Virus record (IMG/VR): IMGVR_UViG_3300037485_001042
Coordinates: 1 to 41,778 of that record
DNA length: 41,778 nt
Strand: one strand, 5' to 3'
DNA from: a virus
Below, in pieces: positions 806 to 34,711 of this stretch. Position numbers and translations under genes: made by a program. Under the pieces are notes generated by a model. It ran no database searches. It saw only the letters and a program-made list of their open reading frames with translations, and was not told the origin of the DNA. Each line of letters opens with the position of its first letter. Positions within the stretch are counted from its first letter, which is position 1.

Positions 806-1008
806 AATCCCACCCCTGAATATATTGTTGCGGCCTTGGGCTGTTCCGGCTCCCATACAAACGGTTCATCACCTATGATGAGTTTGCAGTCTCGCGCCTT
901 TGCCGCCTTCAACAGTTCGGGCAGGCATGCGTATAGGGCGGTGAGATCCCGGCCGGTCATGTACATTTCGATTAAATAACATTGTCCGGGCTGAAGTGGT
1001 GCGTTCAA
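802..1008 (-). CDS. Hypothetical protein, 68 aa
   Basis: A small protein with no recognised domain. It looks soluble, with an alpha/beta pattern (LTALYACLPELLKAAKARDCKLIIG) and a Trp/Pro-containing tail. Its ATG overlaps the TGA of the helicase-methyltransferase gene by 4 bases and its TGA overlaps the GTG of the nuclease gene, so it is translationally coupled within the DNA-metabolism operon. Confidence 0.65.
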   Translation of the reverse strand: MNAPLQPGQCYLIEMYMTGRDLTALYACLPELLKAAKARDCKLIIGDEPFVWEPEQPKAATIYSGVGL

Positions 1009-3284
1009 GATAACTTCCCCTGAATAGTGAAGTCATCCAATCTCTGCTGCTTGGTGTTGGCATCGAGGCTTGCTTTTTTCAGGTTCTCATATGCCTGGTC
1101 GTAATAGGATTTTTTTAACTCAATCCCGTATGCTCTCCGGCCCATTCTCACGGCTTCATAGAGGGTGGACCCGATGCCGACAAAGGGATCGAATACCAAA
1201 TCTCCGGGATTCGTCCATAGTTCCAGGCATCGTTCAATCACATCAAGTTGCAACGGGCAGATGTGCTTCTCATCTTCATCTTCCCTGACGCTCTCCTTCT
1301 GAAGTGTTCGGCCTTGCTTAATGTCCATCCATACCGGGCTGGCAACGTTCTGCCATTTCTCAACGGGATAACTCCGGTTATCGTGGGTGATGGGTTCTGC
1401 ATTCTCTCCTGGTTTCCGCATGGTGATAACATAATCCGGCAGACCGTTCCTGCTCATCGAAGAATCTTTTTTAATCTGTTTGTGCAGGAGTCCTAAAGCC
1501 TTTGTTCGGGTCATTTCCACTACCGGACACTTCCAGACCGTTACCCTCGAGTGATAGATGAATCCGATTTCTTCAAACAGTCGGATGAGTTGTCCGGAGA
1601 AGTCTTTCATTCCGATAACCCCATCACGTTCTTTCATGCGTGGAATGTCCATGCAATGAAACGACATCAGCCGGCCGGGTTTAAGGATACGGTAAAACTC
1701 TGTTGATAAATACCGAAAGTGCTGGAAAAACTCTGCATCACTCCGGGAGTTTCCGAGGTCTCGTTCTGAATTAGAATAGCAATACAACTGCGAGAACGGA
1801 GGAGAATAGATAATGAAATGAACACCCTCGTCTGGAATCTCCTTAATCTTCTGACATGAATCCCCAAGGATCAGGGTGAACTTCTCATCTGCTTTGCTAT
1901 CCGTAACATATTCTTCCATTTTTCGCTCCGTCTGCCTGATATTTTTAGATGTGATCTCCTGCGTTGCTGCAATCATCTCGCTGATCATCCGGTTGAAATC
2001 GTCCTCTTTTCGCTTGATATTCCTGACAACCGGACCTTCAGCATTGGAAGAAATGATGAAAACATCCACCTGCTTATCCTGCCCAAATCTCCAGCATCTT
2101 CTTACCGCCTGGTAATACTGCTCAAACGAATCGGACAGTCCAACAAAACAGACGTTATGGCAATGCTGCCAGTTTAGACCGAATCCGGCAATGCTTGGCT
2201 TGGTAACGAGAACCTTAATCTTCCCGTCTGAAAACTCCTTTAAAGTCCTCTCTTTGTATTCCCTGTCGTGTGAACCTCTGATTTCCACTGCTCCAGGTAT
2301 GGCTTTCGTGAGTTGTTCACTTTCGGAATTAAGGTCACACCAGACTATCCATGATTCATCGAGATACGCAGATTCGTTTACAATTGCTGCCGTGGCTGCT
2401 ACCCTTAAATCAAGCGAATCCATCCGGGCCTTCCGGCGGTCTGATAACGTGGTGGACCTTACAACGAAGCCATTGTTTTGAGATACGCTTACCTGATGGA
2501 TTTCCAATGGCGGGAGTAGGAATCCTCCGGTATCTTCGTATTGAAGGTCTGAAGGCTTCGACATCATTACAGCCCATGTTGCTACCCACTCCCAGAACTT
2601 CTTAATCGAATGTCCCTTTAATCTCCATTTTGATGTTTCCCCTCCATCGTGAACGAAAAACATTGAGAGCATTTCCGTTCTACCCATTACGCCAATAAAT
2701 TCTGCATGATTCCCTAACTCCATGTAGTCGTTCGGTGCTGGCGTGGCGGTGCAGGCTAATTTGTATGGAATCTCCCGGAACATCTCAATGATTTGAGTCC
2801 TTACCTGCCCGTTGAATGATTTGAGAATTGAACTTTCATCCAGGACAATGCCGATAAATTCAGACGGTGTAAAGTGATGCAGCATATCATAGTTCGTGAT
2901 GTTGATACCTGGCTGCACATCGTCCTGTGAACGGCATAGGGTTACTCCAATACCTAACTTCTCACCCTCTCCTACCGTCTGATTGGCTACGGCTAACGGT
3001 GCAACAACGAGGACATTCTTTCCAGTATGCTGAACGATCTGGTCTGCCCATGACAACTGAATGAATGTTTTACCTAGTCCGGTTCCTAGGAATACGCAGG
3101 CTTTGCCCTTGTGCAACGCCCAAATAACTATGTCCTTCTGGAAGTCGAATAGAATCGGGTTTAATACTTCCTTTTCAATTGATATCCCACATGCCTCAAA
3201 CTGTAGTCGCTTCGATTCGATGAACTTTGCATAGGAGTTATCAATGGATGATTGCGCTCTTTCGCAGAATGCAGCGGTGTTCAT
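1005..3284 (-). CDS. Superfamily 2 helicase / DNA methyltransferase fusion
   Basis: A 759-aa two-domain protein. Residues about 45-430 form an SNF2-type ATPase: Walker A GTGLGKT (67-73), a DESS motif II (149-152), motif III-like CTATPAPND (178-186) and a motif VI-like QAVRRCWRFGQ (392-402). Residues about 465-740 form an amino-methyltransferase with the catalytic SPPF (494-497) placed before the S-adenosylmethionine-binding DPFVGIGST (699-707), the beta-class order typical of N4-C or N6-A enzymes. Such fusions are common in phages and are thought to couple DNA translocation to modification, protecting viral DNA from host restriction. No restriction partner is evident. Both neighbours overlap it by 4 bases. 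Confidence 0.93.
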   Translation of the reverse strand: MNTAAFCERAQSSIDNSYAKFIESKRLQFEACGISIEKEVLNPILFDFQKDIVIWALHKGKACVFLGTGLGKTFIQLSWADQIVQHTGKNVLVVAPLAVANQTVGEGEKLGIGVTLCRSQDDVQPGINITNYDMLHHFTPSEFIGIVLDESSILKSFNGQVRTQIIEMFREIPYKLACTATPAPNDYMELGNHAEFIGVMGRTEMLSMFFVHDGGETSKWRLKGHSIKKFWEWVATWAVMMSKPSDLQYEDTGGFLLPPLEIHQVSVSQNNGFVVRSTTLSDRRKARMDSLDLRVAATAAIVNESAYLDESWIVWCDLNSESEQLTKAIPGAVEIRGSHDREYKERTLKEFSDGKIKVLVTKPSIAGFGLNWQHCHNVCFVGLSDSFEQYYQAVRRCWRFGQDKQVDVFIISSNAEGPVVRNIKRKEDDFNRMISEMIAATQEITSKNIRQTERKMEEYVTDSKADEKFTLILGDSCQKIKEIPDEGVHFIIYSPPFSQLYCYSNSERDLGNSRSDAEFFQHFRYLSTEFYRILKPGRLMSFHCMDIPRMKERDGVIGMKDFSGQLIRLFEEIGFIYHSRVTVWKCPVVEMTRTKALGLLHKQIKKDSSMSRNGLPDYVITMRKPGENAEPITHDNRSYPVEKWQNVASPVWMDIKQGRTLQKESVREDEDEKHICPLQLDVIERCLELWTNPGDLVFDPFVGIGSTLYEAVRMGRRAYGIELKKSYYDQAYENLKKASLDANTKQQRLDDFTIQGKLS

Positions 3285-16558: not shown

Positions 16559-17707
16559 TTAACTTGCGCCTGCCTGGTGATAGGTAAACCGTGGGTCTAA
16601 TGGAGTCCCGCCGAATACATGCCTTACACGGTACATGATATTGTCCGTTGAGAAGTCTCCATCGAACGGAGAAACCGAACTTCCACCAACGAGAACCTTG
16701 TCGGAACCCTTCATGACGATTTCCGGTGTCTCATGTCCACGCAGGAAACCCATCTCAAGGGCTGCACCCTGGCTTGGGTCTGCGAATAGATACCAGCCTG
16801 TGCCGCCGTGGGTGGTGTCGATGACTGGCAGGAACGGGTCAACGTGCAACTGAAGGCCCATCTGTGGGATTACGTTGGTTGTCGGGTATGGGACAGATGC
16901 TGATTCGTCATCGGATGTTGAGGTCCACATCTTCAGGCCGGAAGTAAGGATACTTCGGGCGGTGAACTCTAATGCTGGTGGAACGACTAAATGTTTAGCC
17001 ATTACGCCGATAGGTTCACCGTTCGGGTCAACCTGTGCCGTCATGAGTGCCATTGTGGTCTCAAGGTTGGCAAGTGTCAGTGGTAGAACACCAAGGTTTG
17101 TTACAGTCTGCCCGCAGTCGGATAACGAAGCACCGTATAGGCTGGTGTTCCCATGCCCGCCTGTTGCTGCATAGAGTCCGGTAACAAACCGGGATTCACT
17201 GCGGAGTGCCGCTGTTGCGAATCTCTGCGGGATGTCTGCGAATGCGTTCAACTGGTCGTTGATGAGAGACTCCCATGAGATATCGAACTGCCTGCCGTAT
17301 TTCTTCACGTTGTAGGTATACCGGCAGTTCACCGGCTTGGTTGGCAGGTATTCGCCTTTCTCCGGGACGACATCGAGATAGTTATCAGACCCGGAAAGTT
17401 TCTCTCTCCTTACGGTGTTGAAGTCCGGGACGGATGAGACACGGACGTAGGAACGCCAGTCTGCGTAAACCGCCTTGTAATTAGCAAGGAGTTGCCTGTC
17501 GATCACATGCCCGAAGAGATATGGGAAGTCTGATGTGGTGATGGCCTCTTCCAGCATTGCCTTGTGCATTGCCGGGCGGTATCCTGCACGGTTGGACAGA
17601 AGATCCTTTGCTCTGATGAGATCCGCTTCCTGTACCTGCCTGGATTTCACGCCGTGGTAGTTATCCCAGGCGTTCATTGATTCGCTTAATGTTTGTGTTT
17701 CGATCAT
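16559..17707 (-). CDS. Major capsid protein (HK97 fold, Mu gpT-like)
   Basis: A 382-aa protein with a good ribosome site (GGAGG before ATG 17707). Diagnostic stretches: YADWRSYVRVSSVPDFNTVR, then LDVVPEKGEYLPTKP, then YGRQFDISWESLINDQLNAF, the P-domain/E-loop pattern seen in gpT-type HK97-fold capsid proteins. The C-terminal part has GGSSVSPFDGDF and DPRFTYHQ. It follows the protease/scaffold and decoration genes, the expected order. No separate delta domain is apparent, which fits a scaffold carried on the protease protein. Confidence 0.88.
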   Translation of the reverse strand: MIETQTLSESMNAWDNYHGVKSRQVQEADLIRAKDLLSNRAGYRPAMHKAMLEEAITTSDFPYLFGHVIDRQLLANYKAVYADWRSYVRVSSVPDFNTVRREKLSGSDNYLDVVPEKGEYLPTKPVNCRYTYNVKKYGRQFDISWESLINDQLNAFADIPQRFATAALRSESRFVTGLYAATGGHGNTSLYGASLSDCGQTVTNLGVLPLTLANLETTMALMTAQVDPNGEPIGVMAKHLVVPPALEFTARSILTSGLKMWTSTSDDESASVPYPTTNVIPQMGLQLHVDPFLPVIDTTHGGTGWYLFADPSQGAALEMGFLRGHETPEIVMKGSDKVLVGGSSVSPFDGDFSTDNIMYRVRHVFGGTPLDPRFTYHQAGAS

Positions 17708-19232: not shown

Positions 19233-20882
19233 TTACCTACCTGTTGCGGCGATCTCTGCCATTTTCTCTGCTTCAGCCAGACTCTTCCCGGCCCTGATGA
19301 AGTCTTCCTTGAAGGATTCCTTCAGTGCTTTGGTGATGTCGGTTGATGTTGTTGATACAGCTCCCATGCCCCGGACCTTCCCGGACTCCATGATTTTACC
19401 GTAGTAATCCGTTTCTGTTTTGATGGACTCTTCAACGATTGTATTGAATGCATCAATATCAAGAACGCCTTCTTTTAGAACGGCTTTTCCTACCAGTGCA
19501 TCAAGGATGCGTGGCTTTGCAAGGTTCGGGACTTTGGCATCTTTTAATGCTTCGGTAGCAATGATAGCGGCTTCTCCCACGGCGGTTTTCTCTTTCAGCC
19601 TGGCGCATTCTGCTTCCAGTGCGAGAATCTTCGCCTTTGCATCTTCCAGTTCGGATTCAGATACCTTAACAGATTCTGTTTCCTGCGACTCTTTCAGGAT
19701 ATCCGCTTTGAGTTCGTCAATGATCTCCGGGCGGGTTTCCTTCAGTTCTTTAAGTGTGATTGTCATGATGTCTTCCTTGTTTTCTTCTATCGGTGCGTTG
19801 TTCGTCTCGCTGTTCTTATCTGTTTCAGGCTCTCTCCAGGACTCATACATCTGCACAAGTCCACCACCGGCTCCCGGCAGGGTAACAAAATCAACAGAAT
19901 ACGCCTTATCGAGAGATTCGATAATCGAACCACTCCGGCCTTCTGCCTGCCCTGATTTTGATTTACCTTGTGCACGGTGAGATAGCCCGATATACGGTGC
20001 CATTTCTTTCAGCATGCCGCGATACGGCTTGAATACGTGTGCATCTGCGTAAACTCCTGCACCGTCTGGATTATCCTTCTCATACCGGACGTTGCCCTCG
20101 ATCACGGCTGCCAGATCCTTGATAGACCGTTCGGGCCTGCCTTTTTCTTCGATGGATGTGGGATGATCGAGGTACATGTGCAGCCCGTAGGTGTAGACCT
20201 TCGAGGCATCACGTTCTAGCATCTGTTCAGAATAGTATCCCGAACTTCCCCATCCGGGTTTGATGATCCTTATCCGGGCGGTTCCGTTGGATTGGATTGA
20301 TTTTTCCGTAAGATTCGATGGGATTACAGCCTCATCGAACTCACATACAGTGTTTGGAACTAGGGCAGATTCATTTTTCTTTTTCTTCTTACCCCATAAT
20401 TCTTCTCCCATTTTATCAAAGGCTGCCTGTAATTCTGGTGTAATCTTTGTGTTTTTTTCTTTTCCGGATGAATAATCACTCCTGGAAAAATCATCGGATG
20501 CAGAACCTGGTTTCTTTGGTAGGGTTGTTACAACGGGAGACTTTGCATTCCTAGATTTACCGTTAATTTTAGTATTTCTAGATTTATCCCCATCTTTCCA
20601 AAAGTCACTTTGCATTTTATCAAAGGCTGCTTGGATTTCTGGAGTAACTTTGGTATCCTTCTCCTTTCCGGATGAATAAGAAGACCTTCCCAAACCCACC
20701 GTAGTCGTTGGTACCTCTTTATTATCACCGAATGCCTGGTTTAATGTTTTTCCAGAAAACTTCCCAGACGCAATTGTCCCATCGTCTTTAAGAAGAATAT
20801 GATTACCATTTTCTAATGTAATCCATCTACCTTCATCTGAAGACTCATCAAATTCGGTTTGCACTATGGTTTCATCAGTCAC
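19233..20882 (-). CDS. Prohead protease-scaffold fusion with repeat-bearing N-terminus
   Basis: A 549-aa protein from a GTG at 20882, chosen because AGGAGGAGG sits 8 bases before it; an ATG at 20912 lacks a site. N-terminus: a WIT-GNH module (about 20-53), then two copies of YSSGKEK-x-TK-x-TPE-QAAFDKM (about 69 and 137) separated by a basic linker. Middle: a protease-like domain with LDHPTS (His240), IGLSHRAQG (Ser301) and VDFVTLPGAGG (Asp331), a pattern of siphophage prohead proteases; the catalytic set is inferred. C-terminal 200 residues are coiled coil (about 405-435) and helical, as in scaffolds. It should process the capsid shell and be removed before packaging. Confidence 0.78.
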   Translation of the reverse strand: MTDETIVQTEFDESSDEGRWITLENGNHILLKDDGTIASGKFSGKTLNQAFGDNKEVPTTTVGLGRSSYSSGKEKDTKVTPEIQAAFDKMQSDFWKDGDKSRNTKINGKSRNAKSPVVTTLPKKPGSASDDFSRSDYSSGKEKNTKITPELQAAFDKMGEELWGKKKKKNESALVPNTVCEFDEAVIPSNLTEKSIQSNGTARIRIIKPGWGSSGYYSEQMLERDASKVYTYGLHMYLDHPTSIEEKGRPERSIKDLAAVIEGNVRYEKDNPDGAGVYADAHVFKPYRGMLKEMAPYIGLSHRAQGKSKSGQAEGRSGSIIESLDKAYSVDFVTLPGAGGGLVQMYESWREPETDKNSETNNAPIEENKEDIMTITLKELKETRPEIIDELKADILKESQETESVKVSESELEDAKAKILALEAECARLKEKTAVGEAAIIATEALKDAKVPNLAKPRILDALVGKAVLKEGVLDIDAFNTIVEESIKTETDYYGKIMESGKVRGMGAVSTTSTDITKALKESFKEDFIRAGKSLAEAEKMAEIAATGR

Positions 20883-21016
20883 ATTCAAAGCCTCCTCCTG
20901 GATTAAAGGCATTAAGACTATTATAAAAGAGATTTCTATTTATTACCGCGATAAAATAAGGCTAAATTGTGGAGTTTTCAATAAATTTATTATGTATTAA
21001 GTAGTAAGTATGGATT
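20883..21016. promoter_or_regulatory. Divergent AT-rich promoter region
   Basis: An intergenic stretch between the leftward protease/scaffold gene and the rightward AT-rich islet. AATAAATAG (minus strand, near 20942) and TTATAAAAG (near 20930) are TATA candidates for the left. AATAAATTTATTA (20980-20992), about 30 bp before ATG 21017, is the candidate for the right. This would give the capsid genes their own late promoter. Confidence 0.45.
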
Positions 21017-23586: not shown

Positions 23587-26500
23587 TCACGGTGCGATAT
23601 ACGAAATCCGGGCCCCAAAGTAACGAAAGCAAAGGGATCCAGCAGCATTCAGATCAAGATTGAAGATCCCGACATTCGCGCCATGATCCCAACTGCCCCC
23701 GATAAGCACCGCCACATTGCCAATTGCTTGATAATAGTAATCTGAAATATACGTGCTCGAACTGCCACCAACGGCAGACGGGATGAACCCATAGTTCATC
23801 GTGGCATTAAATCCGATGTTTGTGACATATCCATCCGTTGCTCCGTTAGTAAGACCTGTATCCACATACGGGTGAGAGAACGTATCTGATACGTAATCGT
23901 GATCTGCAATCCAGGGATTTCTATTGGCCTTGATGTTGATGCCATCTACCCATTTCCAGATGTTCCCGTATAGGTTTTCTATGCCCCTGTAAGACATGGC
24001 CTTTGCTGCATATGCACCGGAGGTTACCAGGGGGCATTCCCCGGTTGTGTTCCCGAGTTGCACCCCGTTGGTACCGATACCAGCAGTATAGCCTGTTGGA
24101 ATTGCCATATTGGTAGAGGCATCGTCAGTTATCGCAGTAACCCCTGCACCGATTGTAGACTGCGAATCATATGAGGCATACTCTACCAGATAGAGTAACT
24201 GGATTGCAGAGATTTGGTTGAACGTCTGGAGTTCCCATCCGGACCCCCGGTTATGTGCAAGATTCCTGAAACTTGGTAACGTGATGTTGGTGTTTTTCGA
24301 GGATGCTGGTTTTACCGCCGCAACAGAGCATAGTTTATCACCAGTTGTGGCGGTTACATCGACTCCGGCGTTATCAGCAGTGAGGTACCCCCCTGCTCCA
24401 GTTGCTGTCCTAGTGTGGGTAAACGTAACACCGACGGCATTTGGAAGTGTGGTTTGTGTAACCGCCCTTGCTACGTTGCATGTCCATGTAAGGGTTGTAG
24501 AATTAGATTTTGCGGGTGTATGCGTAACTCCAGATGCATCTGTTTTTACACCGAGTGCCACAATCCGATCCACGATATTCTCAATACTATCCGCAGTTGT
24601 AACAGCGATGTTTATAGCGGGTGCTGCGTTCAAGGTAAGAACAATGTTTCCATTTGATGTTGGTACGTGAGTTACTTCTATGGTTTCAATCTCTATTTCA
24701 TCTGCGGAAACATCGTAGACCGAACCCTCGAATGCAGAAAGGTAGAAATAATCTTTTTCAACGGTATCTTTTATGAAGGCTGGATGCACCACGAACCCCG
24801 TTTGTGCAATTGCTGATATTATCCACTGATATTTCGTACCTACTTTGGTTGCTTTATACCAGAATTTTGGGTATTGCACCATTACCTGTCCGTTTGAACC
24901 ATCGTATCGGAATCCAGCATCTCCATATACAGCGTTTACCGTCCCGTTATCGGCAAGGTTAACACGCCTTATACCAGACCACGGAAGCAATGTGGAAAAA
25001 TTGGGGGTGGACATTGACGATAAGATACTCCCGTTCGCGGTTACTCTGTTTACCGCACAAGATGTTGACGCGCTAGGATCCCACTCCACTCCCGTTGGTG
25101 TCATCAATGTTAAAAGATCCATCCATTGAACTGTAGACGCATCACTCTTCATTGACATTATCTGTAGTGCGGTTCCTTTCGGTAATCGTGCAGCGGTGTT
25201 TGCACCAGTACCTACTACCAAATCCCCCGCAGCATCCCATATCGTATCGGTGGCAACATCACCACCTGCGGCGGGAGTTTCCCATGATACCGTGGTTGCT
25301 CCTGCGGTGAGGACTTTCCCAGAATCTCCCTTTGTTAACTTCCCTGCTGTGTTTGCCCCGGTTCCTATCACCAAGTCTCCGGCGGCATCCCAAATGGTAT
25401 CAGTTGCTATTCCACCATGACTATGATCTCTTCTAGCGGCTAATATTTGAGTTCCCGGTGATGCAGTTCCGTTTGGTTCAGGGTTGGTGGTGTCGAAGAT
25501 TGCCTTATGTGTTCGGGTTGTTTCTCCGTTGGCAATACCTATCACATTCAGGAGTCCGGCTGCCGGTGCTACTGGTGCTATCAGGTGGTAATACGCTCCA
25601 GACCCGCCGCCTTCTAACCCGATAAGGTTGTTATGCGATAACGAGATCGGAGTCTTAACGTAGGTATAATTTGTTGTCCCATTATGGGTGATGTAGAGAA
25701 TCCGGGTTTGCCCTCCACCCCTGTTAGATTTGGCAAAATATTTGAATACCAGGTAATCGGTTGCAAGAATTGTAAAGGCCGGCTGAACGGATGCTATCTG
25801 TGAAAGGGTATTCGTGGTACTAAGATCTGCCGTAGAAACGTTGAATAGTTCAGTTTCAGTTCCATCGGCTGCTCTTATATACACCCGAATTACAACGATA
25901 TTCGTATCAGTTGCGCTACTCGCGTAACACCATGTTTTGAAGGCCCATTCTCCACCGGCTATCACAGTGGTTCCAAGTGGTAATGCCGTTGAATAGGTAT
26001 CAATCAGTGCTTCTACGTTCCCCGTTGACTGTGCAGAATCCGTCTGCGTTGCTATTGCCGTATTCGGTGCGTTGATTAATTTCCCCGTTGAGATTGTGCC
26101 TGGGTCGGTTGCAGGGACGTAATCTCCAGCATATCCAGAAGTGTTCACCGGGATGCTGAATGAGTTCACGTTGATATAGGTAATCTTATGGAAGACGTTT
26201 GCGGCTCCTGCCGGGCTGTTTAATGCCGTCCATCCCGCTTGAGTAATGCCTTCAAATTTAACGTATGCTCCGGTTGCCAGTCCATGCCCCGTCCACGTTA
26301 CTACGCAGGCCACCGCCCGGGTCATTCCTTCGATGTCTTCATCCGTATCGTCCAAGTAGAGATCCGTTCCACCGGCTGAACTTACTACCGCTGAATCCGC
26401 TGCTACCCACGAAACCCCATCGAATTTTAATAACTGGTTGGCAACGGGTGAAGGTACTGAAACATCAGATAACCCGTTAAGGTTGTAAATCATTGTCAGG

Positions 26501-28026
26501 CGGACGTTGTATTTACCAGTTGCATGTTTTACTATGCACCTGCCAAGTCTAACTTCAAAGTTAGGTGCAACGGGTATAACCGATGTTATTGCACCGGGGG
26601 TTGCGGCGGATAGGTAGAACGAATCCCCTTCCGCACCATCAAAGGCAGATGTGTCCATGTGAACATGACCGCGAGTTGTAACAAATCCCGTTTCATGGGT
26701 GAGGATGTCTTCAGATGCCAGTCCAAGCACCTGACAGGTAGTGACGGAATTAGCCTGTGCAAGTGCAATTGATACCACTTGTGGAGTGCCGCCCACCCCT
26801 ACCGTATAAACCGCACTCCCTTTCGGGATGGTAATTGCAGACTGGTTGTAACATCTGCGATACTCCCGTAATCCCAGCGGGAGGGAAGTCGTTGCATCCA
26901 GTTGTATTCTTGCCGTTCCATCATCCGGACTCCAATACATTGAACTTACATCAGGAGAGCCTGGAACAGTTGGAGTTAAACCGAATTTTACAGGTGAATC
27001 CGTTGAAAGGGTGGTTCCGTCTATGGTTCCTGCATTTATGTCAACCTTTGAGATTACAACTGAACCTGTGCCTTTCGGTGTGATGGTAATCGGGATTGCT
27101 GCATCTGTTCCGTCCGCTGCCAGGGTGGTTCCGGTGAGCGTGACTCCCGCCGCTGCCACTCCGGTATCAAGGGTTGGTGCTGTTACTACTCCGGTAAACG
27201 TGGGTGATGCGATAGGTGCATAATATGAACCGTGTTGTCCATCCAACTTATCAGAATCGGCTGCGGTTCCTGCGACAGGTAAGAAATCTGATGTCTTTTT
27301 ACCGGAGTCTTTTATTATTTTTCCAGTTGCACCGTTGAAGATTGCAATATCATCTGCTGTTGCTCCGGCTGGCCCTACCACATCACCTGTTCCCGCTACC
27401 GCTGCATTGATCCATTTACCTGTTCCGTCATCATACTTCAGAACCTGGTCATCTACCAGTGGAGCAGTAATGACAACATCTGACAGGTCATCTAATGCAG
27501 ATGCTCCACCGCCGCCGCCGGGACCGGATGCAAGGACAACGCCACCGGATGGATACTCCCATTTCGTATCGTAGTCTTCCTTTGACTTCTTCACCGGCAC
27601 TTGACCGGGTTCTCCTCCGGGTGGCAGGCCGGGTCCGGGTTCCCCTTTCTCACCTGGTATGGATTCTCCGTCCTGCCCGTCTTTACCAGGTGGTCCCTTC
27701 GGGCCGGGAGATCCGTTTATCCCATCTCTGCCGTTTATCCCGTATGCTCCACGTTTACCAGGTTCACCCGTTTCTCCCTGTGGTCCTGGCTCACCTGGAA
27801 TACCGGGTTTACCTTGTGGCCCGGTATCTCCCGGAAGGCCATGAAAGATTAACAGGTCATTCCAAGGTGTCTTTCCATCGCCTATTTTAGAATACGATGC
27901 TGCACCGTCAACAAAGACAACGCCTTCTTCACCTTCTGCCAGGATTGGATTTGCATCTGACCATTCCTGCTCTGTTCCTCTTGCCAACTGGAACCGGGTA
28001 TCCTCGAACACTGTTTTTATCGTCAT
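23587..28026 (-). CDS. Large tail fibre: collagen-like region and C-type-lectin-like tip
   Basis: A 1479-aa protein. N-terminus (1-60) has the fibre motif [10 protein letters not shown], then [13 protein letters not shown]. Residues 63-122 are 20 uninterrupted Gly-X-Y triplets, followed by a broken collagen-like stretch. Next come beta-rich segments with repeats ([15 protein letters not shown] twice near 930-990). The last 400 residues carry the pattern of C-type-lectin-like tips of diversity-generating retroelement targets: [27 protein letters not shown], and [17 protein letters not shown], then FGARIS. It probably trimerises and carries host recognition. Start overlaps the MuF stop (ATGA). 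No template repeat or reverse transcriptase is present. Confidence 0.88.
27661..27840 (-). repeat. Collagen-like Gly-X-Y coding repeat
   Basis: Sixty codons encode 20 consecutive Gly-X-Y triplets rich in Pro, Lys, Glu and Asp (for example [18 protein letters not shown]). Such tracts form triple helices in phage fibres and act as rigid, trimeric spacers. Confidence 0.95.
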
Positions 28027-29702
28027 GTTTTACCTCCGTCAAGGACTGTAACCGCAATCCTTCCCGGTCTTCCGCAGTCTACGATTGTTCCCGCAACGTT
28101 CCCGATGGGTGCAGGGTGAAAGTGATATGAATATGGACTTGCCTGTAGGATTTCTCTTTCCCTGATGCTGATGACTTCCGCTGCTGATGCTGACTCTACC
28201 ATACTGACGTTTAATGCAAAGTCTCCTTTCGGGCCGGATGCATCGGGTAAATCGGCTTTGTAGAGCTCTGGGCACCTGCAATTGCTACTTATAAGCCCGT
28301 TGCCGATGTACAAAGTTGATAAGGTTTGACAATCATATACATAACCATGGTACGAAAGGATATTGATCTCGACAATCTCCGCAAGATCTATGAGTCCGGA
28401 GAATCGGTTAAGCATATGTCCCAGATTCTTGGTGTCTCCCGTCATTTTATTGTAGATCGTCTGATCGAGACGGGAATCACACCTCGGGGAAGAAGCGATT
28501 CCATGTATTTGCGGATGTCCAAGACGACTCCTGAAGAACGGGCTCGGTTGTCTGATGCCGCTCATACAGCCGTCCGTGGAAAGAGCCAGACCGAAGAGTA
28601 TAGATGTAAGGTTTCTTTGGGTGTTGAGAGATCCGGCGTGGTTTCCAGAGTTGAAAAGATCTGTATGGATTCTCTCATCCAACGTGGATTCAATTGTATT
28701 CCCCAAAAATCTATTGGGAGATATAATGTCGATATCGCCATTACAGAACCTCCCATCGCCGTGGAGATCTTCGGTGGAAAGTGGCATAGTAGAGGACGTG
28801 CTGCTGATCGTTTCAGAAAAAGATTTGATTATATCATCAATGCGGGATGGACACCCGTTATTATTTGGGTTTGTCGTGATTTCCCGTACGAGATCGGTGC
28901 AACAGAGTATATTATCTCCCTTGCGGAGCAGATTCGCAGAGGCGAATCCGTTCGGTGTGAGGAACATATGATTAGGGGTGATGGTCGTCTTCTTACCGCG
29001 AGAATCGAAAATCTCGATAACGGGACCAGAATACGGTATCACCATACCGGAAAGCGGGTCCGGCACTGTGCATAATGTTTCTGGAACAAAACATCCTGGA
29101 TGTCCCTTGCTCCTCATATGGCCTGATGAATGTGGCTGGTCAATTGGTATCCAGCCGTCATCCATGTTCATCCTGCATAGTTCACAGACCTTCTCATCCT
29201 TCAGGGTGAGCCAATATTTGAGCATCTTAAATCCGGCCTGTGCAATCTGCCGTGTCATTGCCTCCTTCGTGCCTTCGTGTGCATTGCCTATTTCCGTAAC
29301 TGCAATGAGTTTCGCACGTGGCCCTCCTCCGGGAATGGAATACTCTGCAAAATCTTTCTTCAGGTCTCTGGCGATCTGGTTGTAAGTCTTGCCTTCACCG
29401 TATCCTTTCTCAACGATTGTATTGAGTCTCTTCCTGGTTGTTTCGTCAATGCCTGCTATCTGTTCGGCGGCTTTCGCTTGAAGGTATGCGTGAGTGGCGG
29501 GATCAACGGGATTAAAGGAGAGTTTTATCCCTAACTGTGCTGATAGGGTTTGCCCGCCTAACGTGGATGCAATGGTCATCGGGCCGATAAGGGCATCAAT
29601 GAACTGTTGGCGGGTTGCGATCTGGGCGATTGATATGGCGGTATTGAGATTGTCTTTCTTCACTTCTTCCTGCAAGAGTTTGAAGTTGGATTTAGGAGAC
29701 AT
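28023..29702 (-). CDS. MuF-like minor head protein interrupted by an intein
   Basis: A 559-aa frame. Exteins: 1-203 and 475-559. The N-extein holds the MuF core ([20 protein letters not shown], then [21 protein letters not shown] and [12 protein letters not shown]). The C-extein starts CRCPELYKA. Joining the two gives GHPG-CRC, the conserved tail motif of MuF proteins, so the intein sits exactly in that motif. The spliced protein would be about 288 aa. MuF-type proteins lie on the inner face of the portal region and help package or inject DNA. It follows a 42-aa gene and precedes the fibre gene by a 4-base overlap. Confidence 0.88.
28281..29093 (-). other. Intein in the MuF gene (271 aa)
   Basis: Residues 204-474 of the MuF frame. 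Splice features: Cys204 as first residue (block [11 protein letters not shown]), block B with [11 protein letters not shown] (the TxxH residues), block F-like [15 protein letters not shown], and block G-like ISSN with terminal Asn474 and +1 Cys475. The penultimate residue is Ser rather than His, seen in some active inteins. The middle (about 268-440) is larger than in mini-inteins but has no LAGLIDADG or HNH motif in this frame. The opposite strand encodes a nuclease over residues about 210-453. Confidence 0.88.
28347..29075 (+). CDS. Antisense homing endonuclease (Vsr/EDxHD-like) nested in the intein
   Basis: A 242-aa plus-strand frame entirely inside the minus-strand intein (ATG 28347; the frame opens at TTG 28326). 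Order: an N-terminal HTH ([20 protein letters not shown], 20-40), a NUMOD3-like segment ([20 protein letters not shown], 64-83), then a Vsr/EDxHD-type nuclease core with candidate catalytic residues Glu103 ([10 protein letters not shown]), Asp129 (RYNVDIAI), Glu140, His147 ([10 protein letters not shown]) and Asp154, then the GW-x-PVIIW strand. This family includes homing enzymes associated with inteins and introns. Codons match the sense codons in exact register. A TTATAA lies about 30 bp before the TTG; expression is unproven. Confidence 0.85.
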   Translation: MVRKDIDLDNLRKIYESGESVKHMSQILGVSRHFIVDRLIETGITPRGRSDSMYLRMSKTTPEERARLSDAAHTAVRGKSQTEEYRCKVSLGVERSGVVSRVEKICMDSLIQRGFNCIPQKSIGRYNVDIAITEPPIAVEIFGGKWHSRGRAADRFRKRFDYIINAGWTPVIIWVCRDFPYEIGATEYIISLAEQIRRGESVRCEEHMIRGDGRLLTARIENLDNGTRIRYHHTGKRVRHCA

Positions 29703-29704
29703 TT

Positions 29705-29833
29705 TTATTCGCCAGATGATTCTTTTTTATCTGATGATGTTCTTTCCTTCTTTGGTAGGGTTTTTACAATTGTAAAATCCTCTTCATCCAATACAAACCG
29801 CTTTTCTGCGGAGTCTTCATATGTTTTTGTCAT
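29705..29833 (-). CDS. Small charged protein, 42 aa
   Basis: Begins MTKTYEDSAEKRFVLDEEDF and contains TIVKTLPKKER, then a Ser/Lys-rich tail. The TLPKK stretch echoes VVTTLPKKPG in the linker of the protease/scaffold protein, which may mark a shared processing or binding site. ATGA overlap with the ADP-ribosyltransferase gene and two bases from the MuF start. Confidence 0.6.
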   Translation of the reverse strand: MTKTYEDSAEKRFVLDEEDFTIVKTLPKKERTSSDKKESSGE

Positions 29834-31263
29834 TTTACCGGCTCCATAATATAGAAATATCTTCCTGCACCATTCGCCTGTTTTAATCCTTCTACGCCAT
29901 CGGGTGTTGGGCTGTTAATATGAGATTTATAAACGATGTTCGTTACCTGGTACTTATTGGCTTTAGGTAAGACGACTTCGCTTTCCGACATTCCCCCCTG
30001 CGGGTTGCCTATGTATAGTCCTTTATCGCCTTCGTTCTGTTTGGTAACCATGATATGATTACTACCCGAATATTCTGGGAGTCTCATGTTTTTCTCTATA
30101 CGTGTCTGTGAATAATATTCATCATATGGAATTACTGATGCATCTGGGAGTTTGGACGCCATTGCGTCCCATTTTTCTTTTCCAACACGGGCCATCATTG
30201 ATTTGGTGGCTGGAATGGTCATTCTTGGGATATCGGAATCCGGGTCATCTAACCGTTCCATTACTGAATCGTATTTTTCCCCACCGAAATTTTCCACGGT
30301 TTTAAACAATTCACTGTTTTTATACATGGACCTCCCGGCAAATGACTCTGCGGATGTAGCACTCGTAGTCCAAGAAGAATGATCTTTCTGCTGAATAACA
30401 ATTGGGTTCTCCTTGAGGTAATTTTCTAGGTCTGGTCGTTGTGCTAATTCGTATATTCCTCTTGCACTTCCGGTATTTGTAGCAGAAATCATCGCATCGA
30501 CAGAGCAACCACGTTGGAGATATAAATCCTGGTGCAGTGTTGACTTTTCCATTATAGTATCTAGATTTTCAGAGTGAGTTCTTAATGCCTGCATTACAAC
30601 TCCGTTTGGATCTGCCTGTAAATCTTTTGCACTAACGAACTTCGTTTCTCCGTCTAAAAATATTGCAAATTCTTCGCTCGGGCTGACTCCGATCCATGGT
30701 TGACCATCGGTTTTGCGGTATTGCTGAAGAGCCTCGTTTGACATACTTCGCCAGAACCTGACGGATTCCCCTTGTTTTTCAGTCAGTTGGTTGGTTTCAC
30801 CGTCCGGTCCCTCGTTTATCGGCTGGATAACTTCCTTGTATTTTTTGCCAAATATGGTATCGATATCTTCAGGTGATTTAATACCAATAGTGGGAGTAAT
30901 TTTTTTGGGTTGATCTTTGATTTTATTATCACTGCTTTTTTTATCCCCAAATTTACCCGCCAGTGTCTTACCAGTTGGCCCGGTTTTCAACTCTCCCGCT
31001 CCGGTAAGGTATAGATGGTTCCCATCATCCGTAGTAATCCAATGCCCATCATCTTCGGCTTCTTCGAATATTTTTTCCAGCCTTAAAAACTCCCTGATGG
31101 TAATATCACCCTGGCGTTTTATTATACGGGCTATACGTTGCGCAGTTGCCTTCTCTAATGCCTGCAATTTTATATCTGTCTGTTTGATGTTGTCTGCAAT
31201 GAGATAGTTGTCAACTACCCTTCTGATTGTTTTTAAGTCCGTGGGTAGTTGTGGCGGTGTCAT
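29830..31263 (-). CDS. ADP-ribosyltransferase-domain head protein
   Basis: A 477-aa protein. Residues about 1-70 are helical. Residues about 75-107 repeat the module found in the protease/scaffold protein (WITTDDGNHLYL, then GKTLAGKFGD). Residues about 240-475 have the R-S-E ADP-ribosyltransferase pattern: Arg251 in LYLQRG, the STS-like WTTSATSAESF (298-308), and ExE as Glu427-Ser-Glu429 in GGMSESEVVLP. The family moves ADP-ribose from NAD to protein or RNA. Its place between portal and MuF genes suggests it is packed in the head and injected, as T4 Alt is (inference). Four-base overlaps at both ends. Confidence 0.82.
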   Translation of the reverse strand: MTPPQLPTDLKTIRRVVDNYLIADNIKQTDIKLQALEKATAQRIARIIKRQGDITIREFLRLEKIFEEAEDDGHWITTDDGNHLYLTGAGELKTGPTGKTLAGKFGDKKSSDNKIKDQPKKITPTIGIKSPEDIDTIFGKKYKEVIQPINEGPDGETNQLTEKQGESVRFWRSMSNEALQQYRKTDGQPWIGVSPSEEFAIFLDGETKFVSAKDLQADPNGVVMQALRTHSENLDTIMEKSTLHQDLYLQRGCSVDAMISATNTGSARGIYELAQRPDLENYLKENPIVIQQKDHSSWTTSATSAESFAGRSMYKNSELFKTVENFGGEKYDSVMERLDDPDSDIPRMTIPATKSMMARVGKEKWDAMASKLPDASVIPYDEYYSQTRIEKNMRLPEYSGSNHIMVTKQNEGDKGLYIGNPQGGMSESEVVLPKANKYQVTNIVYKSHINSPTPDGVEGLKQANGAGRYFYIMEPVK

Positions 31264-31511
31264 GCTGGAACCTTTCTGGGCTTCCGGGTTTTCTTTTCAA
31301 CTGGTAGGATGATTTCGGCATTATATCCAACAATTTCAGTAATGCCGTTATCGCCGTATAATGGTGTTTGAACCTGTGGATTCTCCATTACTGCTACCCT
31401 CTGCCGTAATACAAGGTTGTCGTTTTCCAGGGCTTTACATCGGAGTTCAACGGCTCTTATTCTGGCATCGAGTTTGTCCTTTTCCCTGACGTAGATATCA
31501 GACAGTTCCAT
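31260..31511 (-). CDS. Coiled-coil protein, 83 aa
   Basis: A charged coiled coil over residues 1-45 (KDKLDARIRAVELRCKALEN) followed by a short beta segment and a basic tail (EKKTRKPRKVP). Located between portal and ADP-ribosyltransferase genes; probably a small head-associated protein. No family recognised. It starts directly after the portal stop. Confidence 0.6.
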   Translation of the reverse strand: MELSDIYVREKDKLDARIRAVELRCKALENDNLVLRQRVAVMENPQVQTPLYGDNGITEIVGYNAEIILPVEKKTRKPRKVPA

Positions 31512-33221
31512 TCATTTACCTCCATTTATCCTCGAGACAACTTCCTTCAACTCCCTTGCTGCCTCGTTTGCCATCTGGTTTATCGTTGCATCTGCCTGAA
31601 TCTGGCTGTTGATATCACCCTGCGCTTGCATGGCCTGCGCCTGGGCCGCTGCATTATCAGATGATTGCTGTGCATACGGTGTCTGCATCAGCCTTTCTGC
31701 GCCTTCAGGGAATATCTCGCCTAGTATTTCTTCGGAGTTCGGGATGTTCAACGCTCTGAATATCTGATCTGCAAGGGTTTTCAGGTCGAAGATTCCTGCT
31801 AACGGCTGCCCGTCTAACGTGGCGGCTGTCTTCAGGGCGGTGATGGTTGCCATTACATCGTGCTCCAGAATGGGTGGGAAGACAACGGATACTTTCTTCG
31901 TGAGTTCTTCGCCGTTTTCATCCAGGGCGGTTAAGGTGTAGATTTCCCGGCCTTCGTCATCGGTGGTAACGGTTCCCATGCTGTGAAGTTTGCCTAACGG
32001 TGCTGCAATGGACTGGTTGATTACATATTCCAGAATATCCATCCAGACATCAGCCCATAGAGTCTGCCGGTCCCTGAACTGCAACTCTAATGGCCTTTCC
32101 ATTGCCTTCGCCGTAGCAAGGTTCCCGGTTGACGGGTCTGCCGATAGCATCTGATCGGGTATTCCACTTCCGGACCCTACCATCAGCCTTAACGGTATTC
32201 CATCTGATACGGATGTTGTGCTGCCGGCTGTTCTGTAGGGTTCTACCTTCACGCTTTCTGATGCCGTGAACGTGGTACCTACCGGCCTGCCAACATCAAG
32301 GTTATCACCTGATAGTCTGGATGATTCCCCCATTACGGATTCGTATTTGGCTTTTGCCGCTGCGACTGCACGCGGGCCGCCGGATGTGGTGATGACTTGT
32401 GCAATCCGGGCTTGTGCTTCCCATACGGTAGCAAGGTTCTCCAGGAATCTTTTATACGCCTTCGCCCAATCGGTGATGCTCAATGTTTCTGGGATGCCGA
32501 ACGTCATATCTTCAAGGCAGTTCGTCTTCACGTGGTAGACGGGATTATCCCACATGATCGGCTTCCCGCCAATGGTAGACGGCTTATCATCAGGGATATA
32601 CTGCCAGTCTGGATAATAGGCCGTCTCAATCTTCATCGAGATTGCACCACTGCCGAAGTCAATCGGTGTTACGGTGTAGTCTCTCCGATAGAACCACGGC
32701 TCTGCTGAATCTTCAGGATTCTTAATAACTTCTCGGATCTCGCTGAACGGTATCGTCCGGACCCTTACTATTCCAGTGCTTTCATTGGTGAAGAAGACAA
32801 AGAAACGATTGCCTGATGTGAAGAGTGCACGTTCGTTCTGTTTCCATGCCTGGTGACTGGTAAGAGATGCGTAATTCTTCGGGTCTTCAAGAAAAGCCTG
32901 AACGACTGCATCCACTTCTTCAGATTCAGCCTTAATTACCATTCCCTGCGCAAAGACATACAGAGCCTGTAATTCTATGGCCCTTCTTACCAGCGGATTC
33001 TTTATCCAGTATGCCCTGCCCCATCCTTCAGCAATATCCAGAGCCTGTTTTGTTAACTCTTTGCCGGATGTTGCTGATATCTGCATCCATCCTTCCTGCA
33101 TGAGTTGCTGTTCAACTGCGTATAGTGCTTCTTCCAGCATCTCGCGGTTGGATTCTCCCGCCTGCACCTGGATCTGTAGTTGCTGAACGGTTTCTTTTAT
33201 GCTTGGTTTTTTAGTTGCCAT
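31512..33221 (-). CDS. Portal protein
   Basis: A 569-aa protein from ATG 33221 (MATKKPSIKETVQQLQIQ), preferred over a TTG at 33242 because AGGAGG sits between them. Portal-type features: AEGWGRAYWIKNPLVRRAIE, SGNRFFVFFTNESTGIVRVR, then TRTIPFSEI-type strands, MLSADPSTGNLATAKAMERP (the strand common to SPP1/Mu-like portals) and a helical C-terminus rich in Gln and Ala. It forms the ring through which DNA enters. Directly follows the terminase and precedes the head genes. Confidence 0.85.
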   Translation of the reverse strand: MATKKPSIKETVQQLQIQVQAGESNREMLEEALYAVEQQLMQEGWMQISATSGKELTKQALDIAEGWGRAYWIKNPLVRRAIELQALYVFAQGMVIKAESEEVDAVVQAFLEDPKNYASLTSHQAWKQNERALFTSGNRFFVFFTNESTGIVRVRTIPFSEIREVIKNPEDSAEPWFYRRDYTVTPIDFGSGAISMKIETAYYPDWQYIPDDKPSTIGGKPIMWDNPVYHVKTNCLEDMTFGIPETLSITDWAKAYKRFLENLATVWEAQARIAQVITTSGGPRAVAAAKAKYESVMGESSRLSGDNLDVGRPVGTTFTASESVKVEPYRTAGSTTSVSDGIPLRLMVGSGSGIPDQMLSADPSTGNLATAKAMERPLELQFRDRQTLWADVWMDILEYVINQSIAAPLGKLHSMGTVTTDDEGREIYTLTALDENGEELTKKVSVVFPPILEHDVMATITALKTAATLDGQPLAGIFDLKTLADQIFRALNIPNSEEILGEIFPEGAERLMQTPYAQQSSDNAAAQAQAMQAQGDINSQIQADATINQMANEAARELKEVVSRINGGK

Positions 33222-33238
33222 GTTGTGTAATCCTCCTA

Positions 33239-34711
33239 TCAAATCGGGCTGATTGAATACTCGCCTGGATAATGGCTGATGATCTCCTGCATTTCCTGAC
33301 CCATTTTATTAAACTGGCTTAATGCCTGCGTGAGTGCATCTACCTGATCGTCATACTTTCCAGATGGGAAGGCCGATAGCTCTTCAATTAAATCATGGAC
33401 TCTTGGATTAAGTTCAGGAGATGGAAGAAACACATTACCGGCTTCTACTTCGGCGGTAACGGCCCTGGCTCGAACAATTTTACCTCCGAACGGTTCAACC
33501 GGGATTAGTCCGGGTATCCTGTTTTTCATTACCTGTATAACGGCTGTTCCATTCGCCTTATCTTCAATCAGTTTATAATGTGCTTCGGGCCATTTCGCGG
33601 ATAATGTTGTGAGTGCCTGAATGGTACCCGGGAAGTCTAATCTTGCATGGACCCAATCTAGCAGATACCGATTCGCTCCGGAAATACCCCATACCTGACC
33701 CGCTACATAATCGCTTCCATCGGTATCTTTGAATGAACAATCCCATGATTGAATGATTTCGTCCATCTTCGGTGCTTTATCGTAGAACTTCCACCATGTT
33801 CGTTTGAACATTGCGCCTTCTTCAGGTGTTGGATTCTGTTGATAGAGTGCCTGCCATTGATATGAACCTAAAAGGGTTTTAATTTGAGAGAGTTTTTGTA
33901 AATCATATTTGTTTTCCCATAATGGGAGTCCTTCATTCCGGATATCATCAGGATGCCGTTCTCGTTCTGCAATTGCGGGTAGCCGTAGGATCGTCCACTC
34001 TTCCGATCCTTCTGTCTTCTGTTGCTCCTGGATACGTCCTGCTAAATCATCTTCATGCCAACGGGTAAGGGTGATTAAGAGTTTGGCATCCTTCTCTAAT
34101 CGGGTGTAAAAGGTAGAAGTGTACCATTCCCATAGTTTATCGCGGTATGTGGTTGAGTTGGCTTCTTCCCGGTTCTTGATTGGGTCATCGATGATTCCAA
34201 CCGTCATGCCCATACCAGTAATCCCGCCGCCAACACCTGCCGATCTGTAAACTCCTGAATGCCCGATAATCTCAAAAATATCAGAATTTCGTAAATACGA
34301 TCCTTGTGAATCTGCCCGGATATTCTTCTGATTAAGAGAAGTTCCGGGAAAAAGTGCTCCGAATTGTTGAGAGTCAATAATTCTTTGGACATCCCGGTTC
34401 ATCCGGCTGGCAAGGTCCGATGAATATGAACATGATATGATTGATGCATCTGGAGATTTACCCAAAATATAGGCTGGTAATCTACGCGATACTAACTCGC
34501 TTTTACCGTGGCGAGGCGGCATGAAAACCATTAGCCGCTTTATATCGCCTGAAATGAACCGATCAAGGTATTGGCATAAAAGAGCATGGTGCCAGTTTAA
34601 TTCGTAATCTGGCTTGGTGTAAAGTGTGAACTCCTGCAATGATTCCCGCGCTATTCTACGCGATAATAATTCACTTGCCGCCGCTTGTGGCGATACTTGC
34701 GAGTTCATCAT
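33239..34711 (-). CDS. terL: Terminase large subunit
   Basis: A 490-aa packaging motor. ATPase: Walker A MPPRHGKSE (64-72) and Walker B VGIIDDP (171-177). Nuclease (RNase H fold): Asp324 in SWDCSFKD, Glu383 in LIEDKANG, Asp454/455 in YDDQVDA. All key residues are present. It overlaps the small subunit by 41 bases and is followed by the portal gene, the classical order. It cuts concatemeric DNA and pumps it into the prohead. Confidence 0.95.
   Translation of the reverse strand: MMNSQVSPQAAASELLSRRIARESLQEFTLYTKPDYELNWHHALLCQYLDRFISGDIKRLMVFMPPRHGKSELVSRRLPAYILGKSPDASIISCSYSSDLASRMNRDVQRIIDSQQFGALFPGTSLNQKNIRADSQGSYLRNSDIFEIIGHSGVYRSAGVGGGITGMGMTVGIIDDPIKNREEANSTTYRDKLWEWYTSTFYTRLEKDAKLLITLTRWHEDDLAGRIQEQQKTEGSEEWTILRLPAIAERERHPDDIRNEGLPLWENKYDLQKLSQIKTLLGSYQWQALYQQNPTPEEGAMFKRTWWKFYDKAPKMDEIIQSWDCSFKDTDGSDYVAGQVWGISGANRYLLDWVHARLDFPGTIQALTTLSAKWPEAHYKLIEDKANGTAVIQVMKNRIPGLIPVEPFGGKIVRARAVTAEVEAGNVFLPSPELNPRVHDLIEELSAFPSGKYDDQVDALTQALSQFNKMGQEMQEIISHYPGEYSISPI

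What the first reader, a model, noticed from the sequence alone, without database searches (positions are those of the whole stretch)
29830..31263. Putative virion ADP-ribosyltransferase in an archaeal virus
The protein has Arg251, an STS-like WTTS segment and an ExE motif (427-429), the R-S-E signature of toxin-type ADP-ribosyltransferases. It is encoded between portal and MuF genes, suggesting that it is packaged and injected. In phage T4, injected ADP-ribosyltransferases modify host RNA polymerase and other targets. A similar injected effector acting on an archaeal transcription or translation machinery would be new to my knowledge.
Basis: partly seen in the sequence, partly recalled or inferred. 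Interest (0 to 1): 0.78.

Follow-up and report, generated by a model that had tools for sequence, protein, structure and literature searches.

The report
Head-anchored ADP-ribosyltransferase in archaeal virus
A tailed virus that probably infects a methane-producing archaeon carries a gene of the ADP-ribosyltransferase enzyme family inserted inside a capsid-protein gene, which suggests that the enzyme travels in the virus particle and is delivered with the viral DNA; nothing has been tested in the laboratory.

Summary
ORF 29830-31263 (minus strand, 477 aa) matches Pfam ADPrib_exo_Tox above the curated cut-off and a profile of eight other ARTs as two collinear blocks, far above 2000 shuffles. 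Arg251 and Glu427/Glu429 sit where expected; the STS motif is degenerate or displaced, and there is an 85-residue insertion. AlphaFold gave no usable fold. New here: the gene is not a free neighbour of MuF. Its first ~67 residues are the N-terminus of MuF, and the next MuF ORF begins where they stop. A short linker joins them to the ART. The nearest relative (portal 90-91% identical) carries the same linker plus a distantly related ART on the end of its PORTAL protein. Another linker copy sits on this virus's prohead protease. So an effector cassette lies at different head proteins in sister viruses. This strengthens the packaged-and-injected reading without proving it. A methanogen host is likely, not certain. 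Precedents: phage MuF-ART fusions, and halovirus HVTV-1 gp115 with an ART in its head cluster. Activity, target and virion presence are unknown.

The parts
29830..31263 (-). ART effector gene, 477 aa
31054..31263 (-). residues 1-70: N-terminal segment of the MuF minor head protein
   Evidence: residues 1-74 are 77% identical to the start of L004 MuF; columns 4-60 of a 24-sequence MuF HMM, 12-15 bits
30940..31068 (-). linker FEEAEDDGHWITTDDGNHLYL..GKTLAGKFG, residues ~66-108
29926..30591 (-). ART profile match, residues 225-446, with an 85-residue insertion (311-395)
   Evidence: Pfam two stretches
30511..30513 (-). codon of Arg251 (NAD-binding Arg position)
30367..30375 (-). codons of S297-W298-T299, STS-equivalent by the HMM, degenerate; an alternative lies near residues 385-388
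29977..29985 (-). codons of E427-S428-E429 (ExE)
29705..29833 (-). 42-aa ORF, ATGA overlap with the ART stop; candidate immunity or coupling ORF
28023..29702 (-). rest of MuF (columns 59-262 of the MuF HMM), interrupted by an intein
31260..31511 (-). 83-aa ORF between portal and ART; conserved in L004
31512..33242 (-). portal protein, without C-terminal extension here
20727..20852 (-). second copy of the linker, at the N-terminus of the prohead protease (gene 19233-20912)

Best explanation
The gene encodes an ADP-ribosyltransferase of the R-S-E (ExE) class built as virion cargo of a tailed virus, probably of a methanogenic archaeon. SHOWN from sequence: an ART-family domain; fused behind the N-terminal ~67 residues of the MuF minor head protein; MuF split at that point; a short linker at the junction that recurs on the prohead protease of this virus and at the portal-ART junction of its closest relative; a tiny ORF overlapping the ART stop. 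INFERRED: the MuF-N segment docks the ART at the portal side of the head interior, alongside the rest of MuF made from a downstream ORF; a few copies enter the head and leave with the DNA; in the cytoplasm the enzyme ADP-ribosylates a host protein early in infection. The tiny ORF may restrain the enzyme in the producing cell. Target unknown; likely a protein, by analogy with phage Alt and MuF-ART proteins.
For: ART. hhalign against the eight other ARTs: whole fragment 63.8%, E 6.6e-5, C-terminal block only; C-terminal part alone 78%, E 1.8e-5; Arg part alone 31%, E 5e-4. Head anchoring: split MuF, ART protein columns 4-60 (15.4 bits as a 68-aa piece, 12.3 in the full protein) and next MuF ORF columns 59-262 (189.8 bits) of an HMM from 24 relatives. 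Sister virus L004: portal + linker + ART, 866 aa, PF03496 above cut-off; its ART weakly resembles the Alt of phage VR5 (29.8%, E 3e-3); its MuF is whole, 345 aa. Recurrence in genomes of the phylum of Methanoculleus: MuF-ART of 766 aa beside TerL and portal (L075); 1071-aa portal with the linker and an ART-like domain (L074). Archaeal virus isolate HVTV-1: gp115 with a C-terminal ART, after gp114 (MuF match just under the cut-off) and before protease gp119. Host. Literature for the class: PMC9503650 and PMC5576092 (passages read; one section of the latter).
Against: No usable fold: mean pLDDT 34.3 and 32.3. STS motif degenerate or displaced, and an 85-residue insertion, so activity is not assured. 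The ART is rare among relatives: 1 of 48 related records, L004 alone, has PF03496, so it is no core virion part. Of seven ART-bearing genomes among 392 of the phylum I saw a head-gene context in two (L075, and L078 less clearly). In L122, an archaeal relative without an ART there, the MuF ORF is also short (212 aa), so a shortened MuF need not mean an inserted cassette. The tiny ORFs of window and L004 do not resemble each other. Host: MCP matches occur in 2 of 392 archaeal-phylum genomes but 5 of 398 genomes of the Bacillota MAG's phylum, though at lower identity. No virion data.
Confidence: 0.63

Rival explanations
1. MuF-type polymorphic toxin: the ART with its tiny downstream ORF is a toxin-immunity pair that harms competing or superinfected cells, or guards a lysogen, rather than reprogramming a productive host.
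For: Small ORF overlapping the ART end in both window and L004; [quoted passage not shown] a relative sits in a 3.17 Mb contig of a genome of that phylum, so relatives can be proviruses.
Against: The 42-aa ORF has no relative in the phage collection and the two tiny ORFs are unalike; L004's rests on a TTG start. Whether the window virus is temperate was not established (the proteins scanned gave no integrase, but not all ORFs were scanned).
Confidence: 0.3
2. Inactive ART-like domain kept as a structural filler of the head.
For: Degenerate STS, 85-residue insertion, no confident model.
Against: Arg and both Glu of ExE are kept although no close relative was found; the sister virus has a distantly related ART at another head protein behind the same linker, which suggests gain of ARTs more than one relic.
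Confidence: 0.15
3. Ordinary cytoplasmic late or defence (moron) protein that sits in the head operon by chance and never enters the virion.
For: ARTs for which a limited look showed no head context exist in archaeal-phylum genomes (five of the seven: L076, L077, L079, L080, L081).
Against: N-terminal fusion to MuF with a matching loss in the next MuF ORF and portal fusion in L004 are not explained.
Confidence: 0.1

Closest known systems
[quoted passage not shown] MuF polymorphic toxins, PMC5576092, which mentions the Enterococcus prophage EFV toxin)
   Same: ART tied to MuF, next to portal and terminase; small ORF downstream; proposed head packaging and injection
   Different: Here the ART follows only the first ~67 residues of MuF and precedes the PF04233 domain, which is made from a separate ORF; probable archaeal virus; linker shared with the protease and with a portal-ART of the sister virus. 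The find in PMC5576092 gave no occurrence of 'archaea' in the main text
Phage T4 Alt (known to me from PMC5512222 passages, and recall)
   Same: ART packaged in the head and injected; L004's ART weakly matches the Alt of a T4-like phage
   Different: Alt is a free-standing head protein of a bacterial myovirus; the window ART has no match in the phage collection at E up to 1
HVTV-1 gp115 (Haloarcula virus; annotated 'zeta toxin')
   Same: Archaeal tailed virus; PF03496 domain (residues 1148-1297) in a gene after gp114 (PF04233, 27.3 bits, cut-off 29.6) and upstream of the prohead protease; an ART in HVTV-1 and HCTV-5 is listed in PMC8651126 (passage read)
   Different: 1313-aa protein with an N-terminal zeta-toxin domain; Pfam shows no MuF or portal part in it
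Methanoculleus virus Blf4 (Pungoviridae)
   Same: Portal 40%, MCP 40% identical, same portal-MuF-protease-MCP order
   Different: MuF whole (269 aa); no ART; no linker by the motif scan

Membership tests
R-S-E (ExE) ADP-ribosyltransferases, PF03496 | profile match above curated cut-off | tested here: met
   29.5 bits vs 23.4; the six-frame version of the same search, which scores stretches apart, stayed below it
R-S-E (ExE) ADP-ribosyltransferases, PF03496 | Arg on the first strand and ExE on the last | tested here: met
   R251, E427, E429 in the matching profile columns
R-S-E (ExE) ADP-ribosyltransferases, PF03496 | S-T-S motif | tested here: inconclusive
   S-W-T at 297-299 by HMM; alternative placement near 385-388
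R-S-E (ExE) ADP-ribosyltransferases, PF03496 | ART fold | tested here: inconclusive
   AlphaFold mean pLDDT 34.3 and 32.3; no fold search was run on such models
R-S-E (ExE) ADP-ribosyltransferases, PF03496 | NAD-dependent transfer | not testable with these tools
   no bench data
MuF polymorphic toxins | complete MuF domain followed by a C-terminal toxin in one polypeptide | tested here: not met
   only the N-terminal ~67 residues of MuF precede the ART; PF04233 lies in a separate ORF
MuF polymorphic toxins | gene close downstream of portal/terminase | tested here: met
MuF polymorphic toxins | small immunity ORF downstream | tested here: inconclusive
   42-aa ORF overlaps the stop; no relative found in the phage collection
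MuF polymorphic toxins | temperate phage | not tested
   not all window ORFs were scanned for an integrase
Virion-packaged, injected effectors | presence in virions and delivery into the cell | not testable with these tools
   no proteomics

The most novel reading that the evidence does not exclude
The short W-[IV]-T-x-x-x-G-N-H linker is a portable head-targeting or processing tag of tailed viruses: whatever is placed behind it is carried inside the head. It sits on portals, on a fragment of MuF and on prohead proteases, and in archaeal viruses it lets different effectors (two distantly related ARTs, an ART-PolyVal-like domain with a JAB-like tail, an unknown domain) be swapped between head proteins. 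In this virus the swap even cut MuF in two, so that the ART chain has become a needed half of a head protein.
Probability: 0.27. Interest if true: 0.68.

Novelty: new variant of a known kind. Interest (0 to 1): 0.52.

Why it matters
If the ART is packaged, it would be a testable case of a virus delivering a protein-modifying enzyme into an archaeal cell, whose transcription and translation machines are of the eukaryote-like type. [quoted passage not shown] the loci here (window, L004, L074, L075, HVTV-1 gp115) argue that head-linked effectors do occur in archaeal viruses. The sister-virus comparison also gives a handle on how effectors are attached to heads: same linker, different head protein.

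Tried and rejected
Relatives of the ART itself: the whole protein, its last 256 codons and a two-sequence alignment of its C-terminus gave no confirmed relative in viral contigs; none in the phage collection at E up to 1. Structure prediction of residues 116-477, alone and with two distant homologs (L004, L092), failed; no fold search was made on those models. PDB phmmer hits to NOB1, 4qpv, Drp35 and Prp8 were taken as chance. The profile match of A5 to solved ARTs was not counted as evidence for the window protein, since eight of its nine members are other ARTs; likewise A8, which only shows that the eight are ARTs. Linker: the 48-aa linker of L004 found nothing in phages; alignment A1 found L004 alone; a degenerate DNA pattern gave 32 stretches, of which I judged 5 genuine (L082, L084, L092, L100, L106) from frame and sequence and dropped the other 27. 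The linker HMM was built from nine instances and finds those again by construction, and L084, a copy of L074; no further match below E 0.09 in 10291 frames, and none in shuffles. Pfam on ten enlarged or extra proteins of the portal-to-protease stretch of relatives gave no ART. For the MuF HMM I chose 24 MuF ORFs by hand from the 44. In some searches I gave 48 records: Blf4, L004-L009 and 41 of the 47 loci (L038, L051, L053, L059, L060, L062 left out, because the tool takes at most 50). Base composition as a sign of insertion: ART part 42.5% G+C, portal 50%, but the MuF-N part is 41.4% too, so I do not use it. Idea that the tiny ORFs of window and L004 are homologous: rejected. L074's ART-like and JAB-like parts: Pfam found nothing; the ART-like call rests on 34% identity to L078's C-terminus, itself only a sub-threshold ART-PolyVal match (E 0.15); the JAB-like motif is by eye.

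Full report
WHAT IS THERE. The ORF at 29830-31263 lies on the minus strand and encodes 477 aa. The window is a linear IMG/VR record of 41778 bases. Around it, read in the direction of transcription: terminase small and large subunits, portal (31512-33242), an 83-aa ORF, the ART ORF, a 42-aa ORF (29705-29833) whose ATG overlaps the ART stop as ATGA, the MuF ORF (28023-29702), a 1479-aa fibre-like gene, the prohead protease (19233-20912) and the MCP (16559-17707).

IS IT AN ART? Pfam PF03496 matches above its curated cut-off (E 5.8e-7, 29.5 bits, cut-off 23.4), in two stretches. As a second test I built a profile from eight other ARTs, six from genomes of the phylum of Methanoculleus, one from L004 and one from HVTV-1 (A8; the profile finds solved ARTs). 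It does not contain the window protein, but seven of its members were located with PF03496 and one of these also with P0001, so it is not fully independent. The window protein matches it as two collinear blocks, model 71-136 at residues 225-310 (11.5 bits) and 137-187 at 396-446 (21.5 bits), 35.4 bits for the sequence; the best of 2000 shuffles of residues 116-477 scored 8.7. R251 and E427/E429 fall in the right columns. The STS position holds S297-W298-T299 in this alignment, so the motif is degenerate, and residues 311-395 are an insertion. Two other alignments place the STS strand near residues 385-388; I prefer the first because both blocks of the profile are then in order, but this is open. 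Against: PHROGs and NCBIfam see it weakly or not at all, single-sequence PDB matches are not significant, and AlphaFold failed. I give about 0.9 that the domain belongs to the ART superfamily and about 0.75 that it is active.

THE MUF GENE HAS BEEN CUT. Residues 1-74 of the ART protein are 77% identical to the start of MuF in L004. L004 (IMGVR_UViG_3300027899_000648) is the closest relative found, with a portal 90-91% identical and a whole 345-aa MuF. A profile from 24 relatives' MuF proteins shows the break: residues 11-67 of the ART protein are columns 4-60 (12-15 bits) and the separate MuF ORF of the window covers columns 59-262 (189.8 bits). Of the 44 MuF ORFs listed, 36 have 266-305 aa. 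So a cassette appears to have been inserted into MuF, leaving its N-terminal part on the ART chain and the remainder on a new start codon. A caution: in the archaeal relative L122 the MuF ORF is also short, 212 aa, with no ART beside it seen.

THE SAME CASSETTE SITS ELSEWHERE IN THE SISTER VIRUS. In L004 the portal is 866 aa: portal, then a linker (EADEEGRWITTDSGNKLLIGGDGKIAGGRNKGKTLEQAFG), then an ART that passes the Pfam cut-off. BLAST between the two ART-bearing proteins gives only the linker as a significant piece (28 of 61 residues identical); a looser match runs from residue 52 to 258 at 30%, so the two ARTs are distantly related, not copies. A 54-aa ORF (TTG start) overlaps the end of the L004 fusion; it does not resemble the 42-aa ORF of the window. 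The linker occurs a second time in the window, at the N-terminus of the prohead protease. It also ends the portal part of a 1071-aa portal protein in a genome of the order of Methanoculleus UBA77 (L074; viral copy L084) and of an 882-aa portal in a 3.17 Mb contig of the same phylum (L122, 50% identical to the window portal), where the following part has no significant Pfam match. It is on a protease-like protein of L100 by my reading.

HOW COMMON. PF03496 was found in 1 of 48 related virus records (L004), and in 7 of 392 genomes of the phylum sampled. Of those seven, L075 is a MuF-ART beside TerL and portal (PF04233 and PF03496 in one 766-aa protein). L078 has a strong solo ART (E 3.5e-29) next to a 958-aa protein whose only structural hit is weak. 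For the other five a limited look (BLAST with window proteins; Pfam on some neighbours of two of them) showed no head context. HVTV-1, an isolated archaeal virus, has PF03496 in gp115, after gp114 (PF04233 just under the cut-off) and upstream of the prohead protease gp119; PMC8651126 lists an ART in HVTV-1 and HCTV-5 (passage read), and PMC4284463 says that the role of the zeta toxins is not known (passage read). An ART gene in a biogas virome genome (MAVG 6) is described in PMC8879888 (passage read).

HOST. Best portal match in 50,697 phage records is Methanoculleus virus Blf4, 40%; most of the 60 records with a match are phages of Actinobacteria at lower identity. MCP is 60% identical to that of a Euryarchaeota MAG (L011) and 51% to a copy in a genome of the phylum of Methanoculleus, against 41% for the best of 398 genomes of the phylum of the Bacillota MAG. 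The host is likely, not certainly, a methanogenic archaeon.

HOW IT LIKELY WORKS. The MuF-N segment would dock the ART at the portal end of the head, with the MuF rest supplied by a downstream ORF; the head then carries a few copies, which leave with the DNA and modify a host protein. [quoted passage not shown] Docking, packaging, ejection, activity and target are inferred.

NOVELTY. Searches for archaeal-virus ARTs, MuF and toxins in archaeal viruses, methanogen viruses with ART and portal, and injected ADP-ribosylation in archaeal viruses (open-licence PMC papers only) returned no paper whose listing describes a MuF- or portal-linked ART in a methanogen virus; I read passages of seven papers and one section of one of them. 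The kind is known from phages; the archaeal setting has at least one precedent (HVTV-1); the split MuF and the shared linker are the new variant.

Noticed in passing
28281-29090 (-) and 28326-29075 (+): MuF carries an intein at its conserved HPGC motif (flanks match L004 MuF; PF14890 E 1.1e-5, under its cut-off; ends by my reading). Inside it, on the opposite strand, lies a 249-aa ORF with a Vsr-like nuclease domain (PF18741 E 8.2e-9, just under the cut-off) and an HTH: an antisense endonuclease gene nested in an intein. A distant virus (L008) has an intein-like insert at the same site with a related antisense ORF, which bears one stop. One paper search listed nothing plainly on this.
   Followed up: partly
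L074:9894-13106 (-): 1071-aa portal protein in a genome of the order of Methanoculleus UBA77: PF04860 portal, the linker, an ART-PolyVal-like domain, a second linker-like stretch, and by eye a JAB-like HxHP...SxxD motif.
   Followed up: partly
19233-20912 (-): Between the linker and the protease domain the prohead protease has two copies of a stretch like SSGKEK[DN]TK[VI]TPE[IL]QAAFDKM (by eye).
   Followed up: no
23587-28026 (-): A 1479-aa fibre-like gene (collagen repeats, tail PHROG 5302) lies between MuF and the prohead protease; L004 has a similar gene just after MuF.
   Followed up: no
L042:9662-13143 and L020:5733-7464: Two other relatives have extra ORFs between portal and MuF (790 and 353 aa; 314 and 277 aa, the last with a Laminin_G_3 match), so this slot takes insertions repeatedly.
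   Followed up: partly
1005-3284 (-): Helicase and DNA methyltransferase matches in one 759-aa protein.
   Followed up: no
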